A stretch of 64,000 bases of DNA, from assembly GCF_001427125.1 (NCBI RefSeq), contig NZ_LMGK01000024.1, positions 14,115 to 78,114 on the forward strand. The letters run 5' to 3'. The notes under the pieces are model-generated. The model saw only the letters and a list, made by a program, of their open reading frames with translations. It made no database searches and had not been told where the DNA came from. Source of the DNA: Pseudomonas sp. Root562 (lineage in GTDB: Bacteria; Pseudomonadota; Gammaproteobacteria; Pseudomonadales; Pseudomonadaceae). The position numbers and the translations under genes are program-made. Shown here piece after piece: positions 47,143-53,751 of the stretch (the stretch's first letter is position 1; each line of letters begins with the position of its first letter).

Positions 47143-47550
47143 GTGTCCAACATCGTTGCCGATCATCTCGTATTGCTCGACCACCTGCGCAGCATCCTGG
47201 TCGCCGTAGGTGAGGCCGAACAGGTTCCCGACGAAAGCCATGCCTTGTTCCTGGAGCGCTTCGACGAACTGCTTGCACTGCTGCCGGTCGACCCGATCGA
47301 AAGCCAATACCTGGGCCAGGACATCCTGTGCCAGGTGATCACCCGCTACCCGCAAATCGCTCACCTGGTCCCGCGCGACCTGCTGTGGTACTTCGCTGGC
47401 GACTGCCTGCACTACATGCCTGATGACGAAATCGATCTGTATCAGGCATTGGAAGAACGTCGCTTCGAAGCCGAACAGAACGACGAGCCGTTTGACTGGA
47501 ACCAGGAAAAGCAGCTACTGGCGTTGTCCAACCAGGACAGCAAGCACTGA
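47143..47550 (+). CDS. PA2817-family hypothetical protein
   Basis: Soluble acidic protein of 135 aa, all-helical by pattern, with HLVPRDLLWYFAGDCLHYMPDDEI in the C-terminal half (conserved Trp and Cys) and no membrane segment. I match it to the small gene downstream of fadE in P. aeruginosa. A GTG at 47143 with GAGG upstream is preferred; an ATG seven codons earlier lacks a ribosome site. Function unknown. Confidence 0.75.
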   Translation: MSNIVADHLVLLDHLRSILVAVGEAEQVPDESHALFLERFDELLALLPVDPIESQYLGQDILCQVITRYPQIAHLVPRDLLWYFAGDCLHYMPDDEIDLYQALEERRFEAEQNDEPFDWNQEKQLLALSNQDSKH

Positions 47551-47568
47551 TCTGAAAGACGCTGTATG

Positions 47569-47602
47569 AAAAGGCCCGCATGCTGAACATGCGGGCCTTT
47601 TT
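47569..47602. terminator. Bidirectional terminator between convergent genes
   Basis: GGCCCGCATG (47573-47582) and CATGCGGGCC (47588-47597) around CTGAA, flanked by A- and T-runs. It separates the PA2817-like gene from the LysR gene and marks the left edge of the accessory segment. Confidence 0.9.
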
Positions 47603-47628
47603 GTTTTGCCGACAGATCGAGTCTTTAC

Positions 47629-48627
47629 TCAGAACAACCCGTCACTCTCGGGCAGTTCATACTCCGATACCGCCGTACTCAAGCTGCCCGACTTGCCCGG
47701 CTTGCCCAACGTCGGCTCTTTCTCCAGGCACTCCACCAGGTAATCGATCAACACCCGAAGCTTGGGCGGCAGGTATCGGGTTGGCGAATGCAGTAACCAG
47801 GCGCCGCCGTGGTAGGACGCCAGGAAGGTCCAGTCCGGCAGCACTTGCACCATCAACCCCTTCTCCAGGGCTCGGCGCGCCGTGAAGTAAGGCAGGCTGC
47901 CAATGCCGATGTGCTGCAATACCGCGCCAAACCGCACGCCCGTGTGATTGGCGGCATAGCGCCCGCGCACGCCGACAGTGACCAGCTTGTTGCCTTTCTT
48001 GAACTTCCACCGCGCATCGCTCGGGGTTTCCCCCAGATAAATGCAACTGTGGTTGAGCAAGTCATGGGGATGAGCCGGTGTTCCATGTTCGGCCAGATAC
48101 TGCGGTGTCGCGCAGAGCATATGGTCGATCGTCAGCAACTGACGCCCCACCAACCCAGCAGGCGGCCGATCGGTAATGCGTATCGCCAGGTCGACGTGAT
48201 CGTCGATCAAATCCACCTGACGATCCTCGAGCAACAACTCCACATCCACTTTCGGATAACGGCGCAAGAACTCCGGCATATGCGGATGGATCACGATCCG
48301 ACCCACCGCTTTCGGCACACTGAGACGCACCACCCCCTCTGGCTCATCGGTGAACTGACCACTGATCTCCATCACTGAACGGGCAGCGTTGACCATCTCC
48401 TGGCACCGTTTGAACACCTCTTCCCCGCCGTCGCTCAAACGCAGCTTGCGCGTGGTGCGTTGCAGGAGTCGCGTCGCGAGCGCTTTCTCCAGTCGCGAAA
48501 TACTGCGGCTGACCGCCGAGGGTGAAGAGCCCAATTGACGTGCCGCTTCGGAGAAGCTGCCGGTCTCGACAACCTTGACGAAAATCGCCATTTCACCAAG
48601 AAGAGGCAACGGTAGATTTATGCTCAC
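47629..48627 (-). CDS. LysR-family transcriptional regulator
   Basis: 332 aa. An N-terminal winged HTH (about residues 10-68) with FSEAARQLGSSPSAVSRSISRLE, then a periplasmic-binding-like effector domain with DLAIRITDRPPAGLVGRQL. This domain resembles the CrgA-type group. It ends in an extended Lys/Gly-rich C-terminus (after about 300). Start is GTG at 48627 with a weak ribosome site. Divergent from the alaX-like operon with 91 bp between, so it very likely controls that operon. Effector unknown. Confidence 0.85.
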   Translation of the reverse strand: MSINLPLPLLGEMAIFVKVVETGSFSEAARQLGSSPSAVSRSISRLEKALATRLLQRTTRKLRLSDGGEEVFKRCQEMVNAARSVMEISGQFTDEPEGVVRLSVPKAVGRIVIHPHMPEFLRRYPKVDVELLLEDRQVDLIDDHVDLAIRITDRPPAGLVGRQLLTIDHMLCATPQYLAEHGTPAHPHDLLNHSCIYLGETPSDARWKFKKGNKLVTVGVRGRYAANHTGVRFGAVLQHIGIGSLPYFTARRALEKGLMVQVLPDWTFLASYHGGAWLLHSPTRYLPPKLRVLIDYLVECLEKEPTLGKPGKSGSLSTAVSEYELPESDGLF

Positions 48628-48657
48628 AACGCAACAGTCCTTTGATGTTTGAACGGA

Positions 48658-48686
48658 TTATCACGCTATTCCACCCTTCATATAAT
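48658..48686 (+). promoter_or_regulatory. Promoter of the alaX-oxygenase-lysE operon
   Basis: TTATCA (48658-48663), a 17-bp spacer and a perfect TATAAT (48681-48686). Transcription would begin near 48693, leaving a leader of about 26 nt. Confidence 0.6.
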
Positions 48687-48705
48687 AAAAAACAGAATTT
48701 TTTAT
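48685..48705. promoter_or_regulatory. AT-rich palindrome next to the operon -10 element
   Basis: ATAAAAAA-cagaa-TTTTTTAT, perfect 8-bp arms with a 5-bp spacer. It touches the -10 and covers the expected start. It could be a repressor site or part of the LysR control region (the 5-bp spacing is shorter than the classic T-N11-A box). Confidence 0.5.
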
Positions 48706-48718
48706 TCGAGCACGGAAC

Positions 48719-49345
48719 ATGACGCTTCGCCTGTTTTTCCATAGTGATGAGCTCAAGGCCAACGTGGAAGTCCTGGACTGCACGCCACACGAGAGCGAAT
48801 TCGCCGTGGTACTGCGCGCAACACTGTTCCACCCGCAAGGCGGTGGGCAACCCTTCGATACCGGCTGGATTGGCGAAAGCCGAGTGCTGCGCGTAGTCCA
48901 GGACCCGGACCGGATCGTCCACTTCGTCGACAGTCCGGTAAAAATCGGTATGACCCAGATCCGGATCGACGAAGAGCGTCGCCATTTCAATACACGCATG
49001 CATTCAGCCGGCCACCTGATCGGTCATTTCGTCCAGGCCATGGGCTGGATGCCGATCAAGGCGCATCACTGGCCTGGCGAAGGGCGTGTGCAGTTCAAAC
49101 CGACGGAATCGGCCCGGGAAGTTGAAGCGCAAACCCTGCAGGGAGGCATCGAGCAGTGGATCGCCCACGACCTGCCGCGCTTGATATCACTGCGCGAAGG
49201 CGCCCGGGAAATAGGTTTCGGTGAACTGCCCGCCTACGGTTGCGGCGGCACCCATGTACGTAGCCTCAAGGAATTGGGCACGGTCACGATCGAATCCCTT
49301 TCGCAAAAGAAAGGGACGTTATCCGTCCACTACCACGTGGACTGA
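48719..49345 (+). CDS. Free-standing alanyl-tRNA editing protein (AlaX type)
   Basis: 208 aa. It is the isolated editing domain of alanyl-tRNA synthetase, which hydrolyses mischarged aminoacyl-tRNA (usually Ser-tRNA-Ala). Motifs: GGGQ (residues 41-44), the zinc-binding H95-x3-H99 and C175-GGT-H179. No catalytic or tRNA-binding synthetase part is present, so it acts in trans. Its place before an amino-acid-type oxygenase and a LysE exporter suggests it clears tRNA charged with a related non-protein amino acid; this is inferred. Ribosome site is weak. Confidence 0.85.
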   Translation: MTLRLFFHSDELKANVEVLDCTPHESEFAVVLRATLFHPQGGGQPFDTGWIGESRVLRVVQDPDRIVHFVDSPVKIGMTQIRIDEERRHFNTRMHSAGHLIGHFVQAMGWMPIKAHHWPGEGRVQFKPTESAREVEAQTLQGGIEQWIAHDLPRLISLREGAREIGFGELPAYGCGGTHVRSLKELGTVTIESLSQKKGTLSVHYHVD

Positions 49346-49389
49346 GCCTTTGGGCGATGGCCCCCAAGCCATTGCCCGACGCCGGGAGG

Positions 49390-49407
49390 AGCCTGCACTC
49401 GCAGGCT
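49390..49407 (+). promoter_or_regulatory. Hairpin between the alaX-like and oxygenase genes
   Basis: AGCCTGC-actc-GCAGGCT, a perfect 7-bp stem in the 93-bp gap between the two genes, with no T-run. Possibly an mRNA processing or stability element that sets the ratio of the two products. Confidence 0.4.
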
Positions 49408-49438
49408 TCGTCGACTCTCTGATAGATGGACCTGAGAC

Positions 49439-50209
49439 ATGATGCTAGACGTCGAGCGTCTCGATGAGACGTGCATAAAAAAACTGGCCAATGAAGAAGT
49501 CCTCGCCATACGCGTAAAAAATTGGCTACCCACGCCGTTGGCGATGCAGATTGGCGACAAGATCCTCGCACCCGGCTTTGAAGGCTATATCAACGCGCCC
49601 AGTATCGGCCGTATCGGCATGGCGTTTTACGAGGCGGAAAACCAGCCGCTGTTGATAGAGGATTATTTCGAACGCGCCACCCGCAACATCGCGGAATTAC
49701 GCAACCGGTGTGCGCCCTACCCGTCGCCGGTCGACACCCTGCGCTGCATGCTCGACGAATCCTGGCCGGCGGGAGCGCACCTGGAAAACCTCTACGGACG
49801 CAAGATGTACGTCGGACTCTCCCGCGTGGTGAAACCCGGTGTGTGCTTTCTTGCCCATCACGACATCTTCGCCAAGGACGCCCCGGACAGCTTCCAGGCC
49901 AGAAGCCTGGAGGCGCAGTTCGCCTGCAACGTCTACCTGAACATGCCCACCGAAGGCGGTGCTCTGCAGATGTGGGACGACGACATTTCCCCGGAACAAT
50001 TCGACGAAATGCGCGGCGACAGTTACGGCATCGAACCGGCTTTGCTTGGTACGCCAGCGCTGGAGATTCTCCCCGCTCCCGGGGATTTCATCATGTTCAA
50101 CTCCCGCCGCATGCACTCAGTGACCCCGGGCGTGGCCGAACCACGCCTGAGTCTTTCATTTTTTGTCGGCTATCGCGGCACTGCTTCCCCCCTGACTTTC
50201 TGGAGTTGA
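49439..50209 (+). CDS. 2-Oxoglutarate/Fe(II)-dependent oxygenase
   Basis: 256 aa, no signal. The iron site His-x-Asp is His140-x-Asp142 (in LAHHDIFAKD), with distal His226 (RRMHSVTPG) and Arg236 ten residues on for 2-oxoglutarate. GGALQMWDDD and GDFIMFN fit the jellyroll. The architecture recalls the BesD-type free amino acid enzymes. Halogenases of that group have Gly where this has Asp142, so a hydroxylase or other oxidase is expected. Two ATGs (49439, 49442) are possible. The exporter gene follows after one base. Substrate unknown. Confidence 0.78.
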   Translation: MMLDVERLDETCIKKLANEEVLAIRVKNWLPTPLAMQIGDKILAPGFEGYINAPSIGRIGMAFYEAENQPLLIEDYFERATRNIAELRNRCAPYPSPVDTLRCMLDESWPAGAHLENLYGRKMYVGLSRVVKPGVCFLAHHDIFAKDAPDSFQARSLEAQFACNVYLNMPTEGGALQMWDDDISPEQFDEMRGDSYGIEPALLGTPALEILPAPGDFIMFNSRRMHSVTPGVAEPRLSLSFFVGYRGTASPLTFWS

Positions 50210-50210
50210 G

Positions 50211-50849
50211 ATGCTTTCAAATTACCTGGGTGAATTTCTGGCGCTGGCAATCGTGCACTTTCTCGCCGTGGTCGCCCCCGGTCCGGACTTCGCCGTAACC
50301 ATCCGCCAAAGCGTACGTTTTGGCCGATGGGTGGGGATCTGCACCGCACTGGGCATCGGCGCCGGCATTTCCGTGCATGTGCTGTATACGGTGCTGGGCG
50401 TCGGCGCTTTGATGCACACCACGCCATGGCTGCTCACGGTGGCCAAGGTCGTGGGCGCCGCCTACATCCTGTATCTGGGCGTCAGCCTGATTCGCAGCCA
50501 GCCCAGATCCGTACTCGAGGGCGATAAAATCACTGATGAACCGGTTATCCAGCAGACATCGCTGAAGGCCTTCACCACCGGTTTTCTGACCAACGCCACC
50601 AACCCGAAGGCCACACTGTTTTTCCTGGCGATTTTCACCACGCTCATCAGCGCCACCACACCACTGAAGATTCAGGCGCTCTACGGGGTGTGGATGTGCC
50701 TGGTAAACGCCCTGTGGTTTGTGATCGTGGCGCTGTTCTTTTCCAGCTCCAAGGTCAGACTGCTGTTCATGCGCATGGGCCATTGGTTTGAACGCACCAT
50801 GGGTGTGGTCCTGATTTTGTTTGCGGGGCGGTTGATGTTGTCGATGTAA
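50211..50849 (+). CDS. LysE/RhtB-family amino acid exporter
   Basis: 212 aa inner-membrane protein with about six hydrophobic segments. The signature PGPDFAVTIRQSVRFGR (about 24-40) and the TNATNPKATLFFLAIF segment are characteristic. GGAG within the end of the oxygenase gene and one base between stop and start show translational coupling. Family members export threonine, homoserine, lysine, leucine and analogues. The substrate is probably the product or substrate of the oxygenase. Confidence 0.88.
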   Translation: MLSNYLGEFLALAIVHFLAVVAPGPDFAVTIRQSVRFGRWVGICTALGIGAGISVHVLYTVLGVGALMHTTPWLLTVAKVVGAAYILYLGVSLIRSQPRSVLEGDKITDEPVIQQTSLKAFTTGFLTNATNPKATLFFLAIFTTLISATTPLKIQALYGVWMCLVNALWFVIVALFFSSSKVRLLFMRMGHWFERTMGVVLILFAGRLMLSM

Positions 50850-50964
50850 ACGCGCAGCAACTCCGATCTGGGCTTAGAAGAGTGGCGGCAAGATTCTGCC
50901 CCTCTTCGACTCCGTGAACCCTGGACCTCTGGCGAGAAGGCTTACGGTTCGATCCTTAAACTAC

Positions 50965-51864
50965 TCACTCAATCGCAACTTTAGCCTGAGTAGTGGCAAT
51001 CACCCTGTCGCCATAAGTAGCGTTGCAGACCACATCACAGAGTTTTCCGTCAGTAGACACGGAGGAGAAACAAGCACTGAACAGCAGTTGTTTATCGGCA
51101 GAAACCAGCTCGTCTGCCGCTAATGTCACATGTAAAAGCCTAAAGGGAGTAACCCGACCCACCTTATGATCCAGTAGCCGAGACATGACCTGACTCAGAC
51201 CATACATGACAACTGCCACGGGCCACGTCGGGTAGTCAGGGAAGTGTCCTTCACACCTGGCTGCCGAGAACCCAACACTTTCAGCAGTGATCTCCTGCTC
51301 ACTCAACGTAAGCACCGACAATGGGAACGCTTCAGCGTATGGAGAACTAACAGAGCTCGAGGTAGTGGGCACTAGATGGTTTGAGAAGAGCTTTTGAAAT
51401 GTCTTTTCTGACAGCACTTGGTAATCCACGGACAACTCTGCGTACAACTGCCCCTCGATCAACAGCTCGGTTCTTGCGAGCACCCTTTTTCGTGACCTTT
51501 CAACGATCTTAGCCCGAGCGGTCATCAACGGAGTTCGTCCATACCTCATGGGGTTGTACCGCAAATCCCAGTGAGCTCGTGAGGCCAAGTAATACACACG
51601 CTCTCCTTCAACCTGCGCCAGCGCAGCAGCGCACGACCCCAGGATAGCCAAGTGGCGCCCGGCCTCGGCCGTAGCCAATGGTCCGAGCTCGCTCCCCAGC
51701 GGTTGCTCAGGCTTGAAATCCCCCCAGATATCCCACTCGCCAGAGACTTTGTAGAGCGAATCAAATGCAAAATATGGGCGCTGTACTGCAATGCTCGTGG
51801 CCATCTGCGCCATGTTGACCGCAGTTCGATCTTTCTGAGTTGGAATCTGGAACACCTGACTCAT
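50965..51864 (-). CDS. Orphan double-hotdog protein (AfsA/FabZ-like)
   Basis: 299 aa with two hotdog-like halves (about residues 45-155 and 185-299). The first carries LGSELGPLATAEAGRHLAIL; the second has GHFPDYPTWPVAVVMYG (206-222), close to the FabZ/FabA active-site segment GHFPxxPxxPG but lacking its Gly. It may act on a thioester (dehydratase, thioesterase or AfsA-like acyl transfer). No acyl-carrier or synthase gene is adjacent. Its codon use looks less GC-rich than neighbours, suggesting acquisition. ATG 51864 follows GAAAGG. Function is unresolved. Confidence 0.6.
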   Translation of the reverse strand: MSQVFQIPTQKDRTAVNMAQMATSIAVQRPYFAFDSLYKVSGEWDIWGDFKPEQPLGSELGPLATAEAGRHLAILGSCAAALAQVEGERVYYLASRAHWDLRYNPMRYGRTPLMTARAKIVERSRKRVLARTELLIEGQLYAELSVDYQVLSEKTFQKLFSNHLVPTTSSSVSSPYAEAFPLSVLTLSEQEITAESVGFSAARCEGHFPDYPTWPVAVVMYGLSQVMSRLLDHKVGRVTPFRLLHVTLAADELVSADKQLLFSACFSSVSTDGKLCDVVCNATYGDRVIATTQAKVAIE

Positions 51865-51963
51865 GGCTGCCTTTCTTCCTATCGGTGATGACAAGAACAT
51901 TGCTTGACCCTGTGGCACATCTAAACAGTAGGGCAAAACCTACATGACCGAACCTGTCAAAAA

Positions 51964-52980: not shown

Positions 52981-53751
52981 GTGACACCACTCATGATCAC
53001 CCTGCTCGTCGTAGCCGGGATCGCATTATTGATCGCCATTGGCTACATCAACCATGTGGTGGAAAACAACAAGCTGGAAAGGGCCCGTACCAAGGTTGAG
53101 CTCAATGATCGCCTGCGTCGTTGCGGCGAAATCACCGAGACCTTCCCCGGCCAATTGATGACACCGGCACTCAAGCTGCTGCTGACCCGCCTGGAGCTGA
53201 ACGTCTGCCAACGTCTGCTGAATCTGGAAAAGACCAGTTCCAACCTCAAGGCAAGGATTGGCGAGCTGGAAACCCTGGTCGCCCAGGGCGAATCGATTCC
53301 GGTCAACAACCCGCCGGCGCCGATCCAGACCGAGGCCAAGGCCAAGGACGTACGCTTCCTGCTCGAAGCCTTGCACGGCCAGATTACCCGCGCCGCACAA
53401 GACGGTTTCCTGCCGCCTAACGAAGCCAAGCGCTGGATCCGCGAGGTCCGCCATATTCTGGTGCTGCTGCACATCGAGTTCTTCAACAACCTCGGCCAGC
53501 ACTCGCTGCAACAGAATCAGCCCGGTCAGGCGCGCCTGGCGTTCGAACGTGGCGTGCAGTACCTGCGAAAACAGCAGGAACCGCAGATCTACGCCGAGCA
53601 ACTGGAATACCTGGAAAAACTCCTGGCCCGTGCCAATGCGCAAGTCATGGACCGCATTGCCCCGGTAGAAGGCGAAGTCAACCAACTGACCGAAGGCCTC
53701 AAAGACGTCGAGGCAGATGCGGACTGGAAAAAGAAAGTGATCTACGACTGA
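52981..53751 (+). CDS. Membrane-anchored coiled-coil hypothetical protein
   Basis: 256 aa. One N-terminal membrane helix (about residues 4-24), then a mostly helical cytoplasmic part with heptad patterns around LEKTSSNLKARIGELETLVAQ and a second conserved half, NEAKRWIREVRHILVLLHIEFFNNLG. A TPR-like stretch is possible near 175-215. A GTG at 52981 preceded by GAGGTC is preferred; an ATG four codons later is the alternative. Probably the gene next to these tRNAs in P. aeruginosa (PA2819 by memory). Function unknown. Confidence 0.7.
   Translation: MTPLMITLLVVAGIALLIAIGYINHVVENNKLERARTKVELNDRLRRCGEITETFPGQLMTPALKLLLTRLELNVCQRLLNLEKTSSNLKARIGELETLVAQGESIPVNNPPAPIQTEAKAKDVRFLLEALHGQITRAAQDGFLPPNEAKRWIREVRHILVLLHIEFFNNLGQHSLQQNQPGQARLAFERGVQYLRKQQEPQIYAEQLEYLEKLLARANAQVMDRIAPVEGEVNQLTEGLKDVEADADWKKKVIYD

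What the first reader, a model, noticed from the sequence alone, without database searches (positions are those of the whole stretch)
48628..50849. Regulated cassette pairing a tRNA-editing protein, an Fe/2-oxoglutarate oxygenase and an amino acid exporter
An AlaX-type editing protein, an oxygenase whose motifs fit free-amino-acid enzymes, and a LysE exporter form one operon facing a LysR regulator. The last two genes are coupled by a single base. The proposed logic: the oxygenase makes a hydroxylated amino acid, LysE exports it, and AlaX removes it from tRNA-Ala or a near relative when it is mischarged. That would be a production-plus-self-protection unit. Alternatively, the operon detoxifies an external amino acid analogue. 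I know of no named system with these three parts.
Basis: partly seen in the sequence, partly recalled or inferred. Interest (0 to 1): 0.8.

Follow-up and report, generated by a model that had tools for sequence, protein, structure and literature searches.

The report
Oxygenase, tRNA proofreader and exporter cassette
Three neighbouring bacterial genes, for an enzyme that probably hydroxylates an amino acid, a pump that probably exports it and a protein that probably clears it from transfer RNA, travel together across distant bacteria, and look like a compact unit for making a toxic amino acid safely.

Summary
LysR (−) and alaX, a PF13640 Fe/2OG oxygenase (OXY) and lysE (+) lie at the stated place; OXY and LysE genes are one base apart. 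62 of 298 Pseudomonas genomes carry an OXY of 89-100% identity; 45 of 45 of those fetched keep all four genes. Of the best 80 of 128 named relatives, 77 have alaX-OXY-lysE in this order (also in Alcaligenes, Xenorhabdus, Caldimonas); a 6.4 kb mobilizable Acinetobacter plasmid carries the trio too. OXY keeps HxD, so by that motif it is no halogenase; nearest solved folds are WelO5 and SadA, an amino-acid C3-hydroxylase. AlaX has the AlaX-M fold and zinc motif. Two results favour production plus self-protection over detoxification: Fe/2OG enzyme-AlaX-exporter recurs with other exporters (EamA, MFS) and in carrier-bound clusters, one for coronamic acid; and OXY seems to have been lost repeatedly while AlaX stayed, whereas OXY without AlaX was met once in 80. 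Substrate, product and tRNA are untested. A structured RNA lies between alaX and OXY in the P. fluorescens group. New variant of a known kind: non-protein amino acid plus private tRNA editor plus pump.

The parts
47629..48627 (-). LysR-type regulator, divergent from the cassette
   Evidence: HTH_1 and LysR_substrate above Pfam cut-offs. Upstream in 76 of 80 named relatives.
48628..48718 (.). 91 nt divergent promoter region; TTATCA-17-TATAAT at 48658-48686 is promoter-like; 9 nt inverted repeat with arms within 48684-48706
   Evidence: The surrounding sequence is conserved in the 22 near orthologs aligned; the promoter scan itself gives 1 hit against a shuffled mean of 1.0; the inverted repeat is not conserved.
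48719..49345 (+). AlaX-type tRNA-editing protein (AlaX-M size), HSAGH (95-99) and CGGTH (175-179), Thr35
   Evidence: pLDDT 94.8; nearest 3kew, 9iuw, 2e1b.
49352..49377 (+). stem-loop 1 between alaX and OXY
   Evidence: compensatory changes; seen in most but not all P. fluorescens-group orthologs.
49388..49409 (+). stem-loop 2; its 3' arm can instead pair with the ribosome-binding region of OXY
   Evidence: alternative helix.
49421..49433 (+). near-invariant GATAGATGGACCT just before the OXY start
49439..50209 (+). Fe(II)/2-oxoglutarate oxygenase (OXY), PF13640, H140-x-D142 ... H226, R129, R236, S238
50211..50849 (+). LysE-family amino acid exporter, one base after the OXY stop
   Evidence: (best NCBIfam hit TIGR00949, 146.7 bits, below its cut-off 183.95).

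Best explanation
A LysR-controlled unit that makes, exports and tolerates a small non-protein amino acid. OXY hydroxylates a free (or simply N-substituted) amino acid, most likely at an aliphatic carbon near the alpha carbon; LysE pumps the product out; AlaX hydrolyses the product from a tRNA that a synthetase has mischarged with it (tRNA-Ala, or another tRNA if this AlaX is not tRNA-specific). Shown: gene content, order, conservation, intact catalytic motifs, folds, recurrence of Fe/2OG enzyme plus AlaX plus exporter. Inferred: that the substrate is an amino acid, the position of hydroxylation, that the product is toxic, that AlaX clears it, that LysE exports it, that LysR controls all three. 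Loci with AlaX or AlaX-LysE but no OXY are read as immunity-only descendants.
For: Trio in this order in 77 of the best 80 of 128 named relatives and all four genes in 45 of 45 fetched of 62 Pseudomonas orthologs. On a 6,362-base mobilizable plasmid the four annotated genes are a MobC and a trio of AlaX (34%), OXY (55%) and LysE (56%). Exporter family changes while the logic stays: OXY-AlaX-EamA in L095, OXY-AlaX-MFS in Embleya. AlaX plus exporter also sit in clusters with an adenylation enzyme and a PhyH-type enzyme (annotated as chlorinating in the two plasmid records): the P. tremae coronamic acid cluster and genome G056 (AlaX-LysE), and a Salmonella plasmid and genome G031 (AlaX-EamA). OXY folds like WelO5 (Z 22.0) and SadA (Z 16.3), a C3-hydroxylase of N-substituted amino acids (PMC3665795 passages); HxD in 80 of 80 named loci. 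A relative lies beside besD in S. cattleya. OXY presence changes at least 6 times on a FadE tree, always with AlaX kept in the loci sampled.
Against: No substrate, product or tRNA is known. One Stenotrophomonas genome has OXY-LysE with no AlaX match at E <= 0.001 in 4.7 Mb. AlaX is common without OXY: 40 of 83 Pseudomonas genomes with a near AlaX lack the OXY ortholog, which a detoxification or general proofreading role also explains. The coronamic acid AlaX belongs to a different AlaX clade, so that precedent is analogous, not homologous. In two loci with OXY and AlaX (L082, L253) I saw no exporter beside them (three L082 neighbours scanned; annotation only for L253). Thr35, recalled as the residue that senses the serine hydroxyl, is Asn in three and Pro in one of the 33 AlaX rows of this clade as aligned, so a hydroxylated substrate is not implied for all. 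Distances of the three genes correlate (r 0.92-0.97), but equally with LysR, so this may be shared descent of the locus only.
Confidence: 0.55

Rival explanations
1. Three-layer detoxification of an amino acid met from outside (plant or microbial): LysR senses it, LysE expels it, AlaX removes it from tRNA, and OXY, an optional extra layer, hydroxylates it to a harmless form.
For: AlaX-LysE without OXY exists at the same locus (5 of 31 OXY-less fadE-site loci), on an Acinetobacter 15 kb plasmid with LysR and, as LysE-AlaX, in Priestia; AlaX alone in 26 of 31. A tRNA editor beside a degradation operon for a toxic amino acid is known: CtdA and canavanine (PMC10018355, passages).
Against: Detoxification predicts OXY without AlaX to be as tolerable as AlaX without OXY; only 1 of 80 named OXY loci lacks an AlaX in its genome. 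AlaX plus exporter recur inside carrier-bound clusters that build amino acids, which detoxification does not explain.
Confidence: 0.25
2. The hydroxylated amino acid is a non-toxic product (signal, nutrient or precursor) and AlaX is ordinary Ser/Gly-tRNA(Ala) proofreading that shares the LysR regulator.
For: Hil operons pair a LysR regulator and a PF13640 hydroxylase of free isoleucine, in some bacteria with an RhtA exporter, and a signal role was proposed there (PMC3684760, part 1 of 5 read). AlaX stands alone beside LysR in 26 of 31 OXY-less fadE-site loci.
Against: AlaX is kept next to OXY across separate exporters and two phyla, more than a shared regulator would need; no AlaX is among the Hil operon genes listed in the part of that paper that I read.
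Confidence: 0.13
3. OXY modifies a translation component (tRNA, EF-Tu or a ribosomal protein), and the cassette is a translation-quality unit.
For: The model also matches prolyl hydroxylases, from Z 13.0 downward; AlaX acts on tRNA.
Against: WelO5 (Z 22.0) and SadA (Z 16.3), small-molecule enzymes, stand clearly above PHD2 (Z 12.9) and the P. putida prolyl hydroxylase 4j25 (Z 12.2); a LysE, EamA or MFS exporter partner makes no sense for this role.
Confidence: 0.04

Closest known systems
Hil operon (HilR-HilA-HilB, RhtA in some), Pantoea / Pseudomonas / Xenorhabdus / Bacillus
   Same: LysR regulator, PF13640 dioxygenase, in some bacteria an amino acid exporter; free L-isoleucine hydroxylated (PMC3684760, part 1 of 5 read).
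   Different: No AlaX among the genes listed there; its core has HilB (PF10014), HilP and HilC, none seen among the eight proteins scanned here. OXY was not compared with HilA itself.
FthB/FthC of the fluorothreonine producer Streptomyces cattleya
   Same: Producer with a private standalone tRNA deacylase (FthB, fluorothreonyl-tRNA; PMC11295145 passage) and, as I recall, a dedicated exporter FthC.
   Different: FthB is ProXp-ST1-related (same passage), not AlaX; different chemistry; FthC recalled, not seen.
CtdA, canavanyl-tRNA(Arg) deacylase beside the canavanine degradation operon
   Same: Dedicated standalone editor next to enzymes for one non-protein amino acid, in Pseudomonas (PMC10018355 passages).
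   Different: Detoxification/utilisation, B3/4 domain protein, tRNA-Arg.
Coronamic acid (cma) cluster
   Same: Fe/2OG-type (PhyH) enzyme, AlaX and LysE in one cluster in P. tremae and genome G056.
   Different: Carrier-bound route with thioesterase; AlaX of another clade; LysE matches only weakly (27 bits, cut-off 25.6).
SadA and WelO5
   Same: Nearest solved folds of OXY; SadA hydroxylates C3 of N-substituted L-amino acids (PMC3665795 passages).
   Different: 15-18% identity; WelO5 is a halogenase with Gly in place of the Asp (its G166D variant is listed), OXY has HxD.
BesE (Streptomyces cattleya beta-ethynylserine pathway)
   Same: An OXY relative (30%) lies divergently beside besD, whose product matches 6nie. 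That it is BesE, an amino acid beta-hydroxylase, is recalled, not shown.
   Different: Acts, as recalled, on a gamma-glutamyl dipeptide; no AlaX beside it (the plasmid's AlaX match is about 74 kb away).

Membership tests
PF13640 Fe(II)/2OG oxygenase | Score above curated cut-off; HxD...H iron triad; two Arg that anchor 2OG | tested here: met
   38.1 vs 27 bits; H140, D142, H226, R129, R236 invariant in the 9 sequences of A1; HxD in 80 of 80. Correspondence to SadA H155/D157/H246, R141/R255 is by order and spacing only.
WelO5-type aliphatic halogenase | Gly or Ala in place of the Asp of HxD (recalled; G166 of WelO5 seen in a title) | tested here: not met
   HxD in all 80 named OXYs.
SadA-type amino acid C3-hydroxylase | Fold | tested here: met
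   Z 16.3, rmsd 4.2 over 222 residues, 18% identity; a broad fold only.
SadA-type amino acid C3-hydroxylase | Hydroxylation of an (N-substituted) amino acid at C3 | not testable with these tools
   Needs enzyme assay.
AlaX (AlaXp) trans-editing protein | HxxxH and CxxxH zinc motif, GGGQ loop | tested here: met
   Invariant in 18 of 18; HSAGH or HTAGH plus CGGTH in 78 of 78 named loci with an AlaX match.
AlaX (AlaXp) trans-editing protein | AlaX-M fold | tested here: met
   Model pLDDT 94.8; 2e1b TM 0.88/0.85, rmsd 2.0.
AlaX (AlaXp) trans-editing protein | Curated score cut-offs of PF07973 and NCBIfam AlaXM | tested here: not met
   22.2 vs 24 and 70.8 vs 300 bits: a divergent AlaX, not the AlaXM equivalog.
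AlaX (AlaXp) trans-editing protein | Deacylation of Ser- or Gly-tRNA(Ala) | not testable with these tools
   Needs mischarged tRNA assay.
LysE amino acid exporter | PF01810 above cut-off | tested here: met
   119.5 vs 25.6.
TIGR00949 homoserine/threonine exporter subfamily | Score above curated cut-off | tested here: not met
   146.7 vs 183.95 bits.
Hil operon | HilB (PF10014) next to a PF13640 HilA | tested here: not met
   No PF10014 among the eight neighbouring proteins scanned.
Self-protection unit of a non-protein amino acid producer | Candidate biosynthetic enzyme, tRNA editor and exporter linked | tested here: met
   76, 108, 109, 115, 123 for other versions.
Self-protection unit of a non-protein amino acid producer | Product toxic to a strain lacking the editor | not testable with these tools
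   Needs deletion strains.

The most novel reading that the evidence does not exclude
Fe/2OG enzyme plus AlaX plus exporter is a general, portable architecture by which bacteria of at least two phyla make small toxic amino acids. A divergent AlaX clade with HxxGH (Gly98 before the second zinc His, where the three solved AlaX relatives aligned have Leu or Gln) is an unrecognised family of self-resistance genes, recruited with LysE, EamA and MFS pumps and with both free-standing hydroxylases and carrier-bound halogenases; a second AlaX clade was recruited separately into coronamic acid clusters. AlaX next to a Fe/2OG enzyme could then be used to find such antimetabolites in genomes. In the P. 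fluorescens group the enzyme, but not its antidote, is further held by its own RNA switch.
Probability: 0.45. Interest if true: 0.78.

Novelty: new variant of a known kind. Interest (0 to 1): 0.62.

Why it matters
It would be a very small biosynthesis-and-immunity unit (three genes, small enough for a 6.4 kb plasmid) for an amino acid antimetabolite, and would give AlaX, usually seen as a general guard against Ser/Gly-tRNA(Ala), a specialised role in self-resistance. It makes a direct test possible: one oxygenase, 20 amino acids, one deacylase. It also offers a marker for finding new non-protein amino acids in genomes and poses the question why many Pseudomonas keep the proofreader after losing the enzyme.

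Tried and rejected
OXY as a halogenase: rejected, HxD kept in 80 of 80 named loci. OXY as a close BesD/HalD relative: not supported; BesD-type chains are not among the hits of the phmmer and profile searches with OXY (E up to 1, 0.1, 0.1), whose best hits are WelO5. Phage cargo: no match in phages, none confirmed in viral contigs. Known riboswitch: only three weak matches below their gathering scores in 47500-51000, all at 47537-47609, outside the cassette. Intergenic hairpins as a dispersed repeat: rejected, one full-length copy in the own genome, the other 21 hits short and weak, and one match per genome in 29 of 119. The inverted repeat at 48684-48706 as the LysR box: not conserved. Azetidine-2-carboxylate as the substrate or toxin: only a lead; PMC5741666 (passages) shows human AlaRS activates and rejects it, nothing ties it to this cassette. 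RNAalifold on 51 intergenic sequences aligned together (window and 50 of 63 distinct) gave little covariation; I then aligned the two length groups apart, that is, and left out 6 of the 63: L105, L112, L121, L125, L128, L140; of these L128 and L140 lack much of stem-loop 1. ORF lists come from a greedy longest-ORF picker and contain spurious frames; I relied on tblastn and Pfam for names. Literature: no paper held the terms AlaX, LysE, oxygenase and Pseudomonas together, nor three of LysE family, dioxygenase, alanyl-tRNA editing and hydroxy amino acid; none of the titles and abstract starts listed describes such a unit. PMC12123629 was looked up and held none of my terms in the part stored. 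Most subscription papers are not held, so absence from print is not shown.
Full report
What is there. In window 47629-50849 a LysR gene (−) faces three genes (+): alaX 48719-49345, an Fe/2OG oxygenase (OXY) 49439-50209 and lysE 50211-50849. OXY's stop and the lysE start are one base apart, as in 72 of 76 relatives measured. AlaX and OXY are 93 nt apart.

Conservation. OXY relatives were found in 81 of 298 genomes of the genus at E <= 0.001, of which 62 (the own genome included) have an 89-100% identical OXY. I fetched 45 of those 62; all 45 carry LysR, AlaX, OXY and LysE, with AlaX in two pieces in L064. In the 15 of these with longer flanks (L056-L070) fadE and PA2817 lie beside the cassette. 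A scan of named species genomes with an alignment led by the Caballeronia OXY found 128 relatives and kept the best 80: 77 have AlaX-OXY-LysE, 76 of them with LysR upstream; 1 has OXY-AlaX (L095); 2 have OXY-LysE. Of those 2, L161 starts at a contig end and its genome has an AlaX at another contig's end; L115 (Stenotrophomonas) has no AlaX match in the genome. Full trios outside the name Pseudomonas in this list: Alcaligenes (3), Xenorhabdus, Caldimonas and two Comamonadaceae MAGs. In a sample of 398 genomes of the phylum 7 matched at all, 4 of these (own genome included) at 63% or more, so the cassette is rare and patchy. Mean identity to the window over 63 near orthologs: OXY 92.5, LysR 91.0, LysE 87.2, AlaX 85.8%.

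Mobility. Plasmid records hold the trio in Acinetobacter johnsonii (6,362 bases, mobilizable) and in Photobacterium sp. GJ3; a 6,362-base Achromobacter record also matches OXY and AlaX. The Photobacterium frames are interrupted in the records. On the Acinetobacter plasmid the trio is followed by an ORF with integrase-core domains; its other unannotated ORFs were not searched. Phage and viral collections gave nothing.

The enzyme. All 80 named OXYs keep HxD. The AlphaFold model (pLDDT 79.2; residues 51-61 poor) is nearest to WelO5 (Z 22.0) and SadA (Z 16.3), well above prolyl hydroxylases (Z 13.0 and below). SadA hydroxylates C3 of N-substituted L-amino acids and binds 2OG through R141 and R255 (PMC3665795 passages); OXY has Arg at matching spacing (R129, R236), invariant over nine diverged relatives. 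Distant relatives of OXY sit in clusters that handle amino acids: with a cyclodipeptide synthase, MFS, luciferase-like and TonB genes (L031 type), beside a PLP decarboxylase (L053), near ORFs with weak, below-cut-off ATP-grasp and L-amino-acid-ligase matches (L055) and beside besD in Streptomyces cattleya. None of the L031-L055 loci has an AlaX or LysE match at the thresholds. The nature of the substrate is therefore inferred: an amino acid or small peptide.

The editor. AlaX has the AlaX-M fold, both zinc motifs and Thr35, which aligns with the Thr of solved AlaX-M in the same motif and which I recall as the residue that senses the serine hydroxyl. In the clade of 33 rows that holds the OXY-associated AlaX proteins the first zinc motif reads HxxGH (in 32 of 33; the other, L232, is a fragment), where 2e1b and 9iuw have Leu and 3kew Gln at the Gly position. 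This could widen the pocket; that is inference, and AlaX proteins without OXY in this clade share it. Thr35 is Asn in L228, L252 and L255 and Pro in L235 as aligned.

Which logic. Three further observations bear on it. First, the same triad recurs with other parts: OXY-AlaX-EamA in L095; OXY-AlaX-MFS on an Embleya plasmid (Actinomycetota, OXY 26%, AlaX 33%); OXY-AlaX with no exporter seen in Caballeronia and Undibacterium; adenylation enzyme, PhyH-type enzyme, AlaX, EamA pump and hydrolase/thioesterase on a Salmonella plasmid and in Pseudomonas genome G031; and coronamic acid clusters with AlaX and LysE on a P. tremae plasmid and in genome G056, with a third, G138, by gene layout and AlaX tree place only. 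The PhyH-type enzymes are annotated as chlorinating in the two plasmid records; for the two genomes that is inferred. The tree puts the cma AlaX proteins in a separate clade (100/99), so AlaX was probably recruited at least twice. I looked at 12 of the 39 plasmid records with an AlaX match, besides those already seen through OXY: in 6 a Fe/2OG gene or an exporter is close by (L249, L252, L253, L254, L255, L256); in 6 none is annotated (Chimaeribacter, Klebsiella, two Pantoea, Cupriavidus, A. venetianus), though that gene table is incomplete. Second, in Pseudomonas the AlaX gene is wider than OXY: 95 of 199 genomes match at E <= 0.001, 83 of them at 57% or more over most of the protein; by comparison, 43 of these 83 have the OXY ortholog and 40 do not. 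Of 35 loci fetched from genomes without the OXY ortholog beside AlaX, 31 lie at the same fadE site: 26 AlaX alone, 5 AlaX-LysE; OXY matched in 0 of 35. On a quick FadE tree of 103 loci (72 trio, some of them the same genome under two handles; 26 AlaX; 5 AlaX-LysE) OXY presence needs at least 6 changes and LysE at least 5; FadE is a neighbour gene, not a species tree. Because gene order is the same outside Pseudomonas, repeated loss is more likely than repeated insertion between alaX and lysE. Third, the converse, OXY without AlaX in the genome, was met once in 80. A producer may lose its enzyme and keep its immunity but not the reverse, which fits production; a detoxifier has no reason for this asymmetry, but a generally useful AlaX would also produce it.

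RNA between alaX and OXY. In the P. fluorescens group the gap holds two stem-loops. In 36 aligned sequences 5 of 18 pairs show changes on both sides, 96.9% of cells pair, covariation score 0.128 against a shuffled mean of 0.071 (0 of 500; slid versions at most 0.035). In the second group of 22, which includes the window, support is weaker: 4 of 19 pairs (14 of 500), score 0.153 against 0.132 (5 of 500; slid versions at most 0.080), pair types not exceptional (65 of 500). The structures were read from these sequences, which favours them in the slide control, and 6 of 63 distinct sequences were left out, two of which lack much of stem-loop 1. RNAalifold prefers an alternative in which the 3' arm of stem-loop 2 pairs with the near-invariant region before the OXY start, so a two-state control of OXY translation is possible; no ligand or effect is shown. 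A model of the element finds it in 29 of 119 genomes, once each, and by coordinates always directly before OXY; genome G002, which has OXY, is listed without a match. I saw no such element in the diverged trio loci printed (P. oryzihabitans, Alcaligenes and others), by eye.

Weighing. That the trio is a real functional unit is well supported. That it handles an amino acid is likely. That OXY makes, rather than destroys, the amino acid AlaX guards against is my preferred reading (0.55 for the whole statement), with detoxification at 0.25. Known parallels exist for the logic: Hil operons (PMC3684760, part 1 of 5 read), CtdA (PMC10018355, passages), FthB (PMC11295145, passage), so I file this as a new variant of a known kind. 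My searches listed no paper that describes AlaX in this role.

Noticed in passing
window 49346-49438: Structured RNA between alaX and OXY, covarying stem-loops and a near-invariant GATAGATGGACCT; in 29 of 119 Pseudomonas genomes, always directly before OXY; possible two-state control of OXY translation.
   Followed up: partly
window 50965-51936 (-): 323 aa protein with no Pfam, NCBIfam or PDB match, between lysE and the conserved gene at 52981; no tblastn match printed in the other loci at their thresholds, so perhaps an insertion in this strain or its near kin.
   Followed up: partly
L256 (Pseudomonas tremae plasmid), L258, L257: An AlaX gene sits in coronamic acid (or coronamic-like) clusters, followed by a LysE gene in L256 and L258; its aligned first zinc motif reads HFAAE instead of HxxxH, so its metal site may differ.
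   Followed up: partly
L255 (Salmonella plasmid), L228 (Pseudomonas G031): Adenylation enzyme, PhyH-type enzyme (annotated chlorinating in L255), AlaX (Asn at Thr35, CAGTH), EamA pump and hydrolase/thioesterase: looks like a small uncharacterised amino acid cluster.
   Followed up: partly
L031 and similar loci: Pseudomonas cluster of an OXY-like oxygenase (33-40%) with a cyclodipeptide synthase, MFS, luciferase-like monooxygenase, TonB receptor and NMT1-like protein (Pfam run on L031 only).
   Followed up: no
L217, L218: AlaX (43-44%) directly followed by a different LysE (33-34%) at another Pseudomonas locus, without OXY.
   Followed up: no
L115 1179-2576: Stenotrophomonas OXY-LysE without any AlaX match in the genome: the one exception to the pairing, 1.2 kb from a contig end.
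   Followed up: partly
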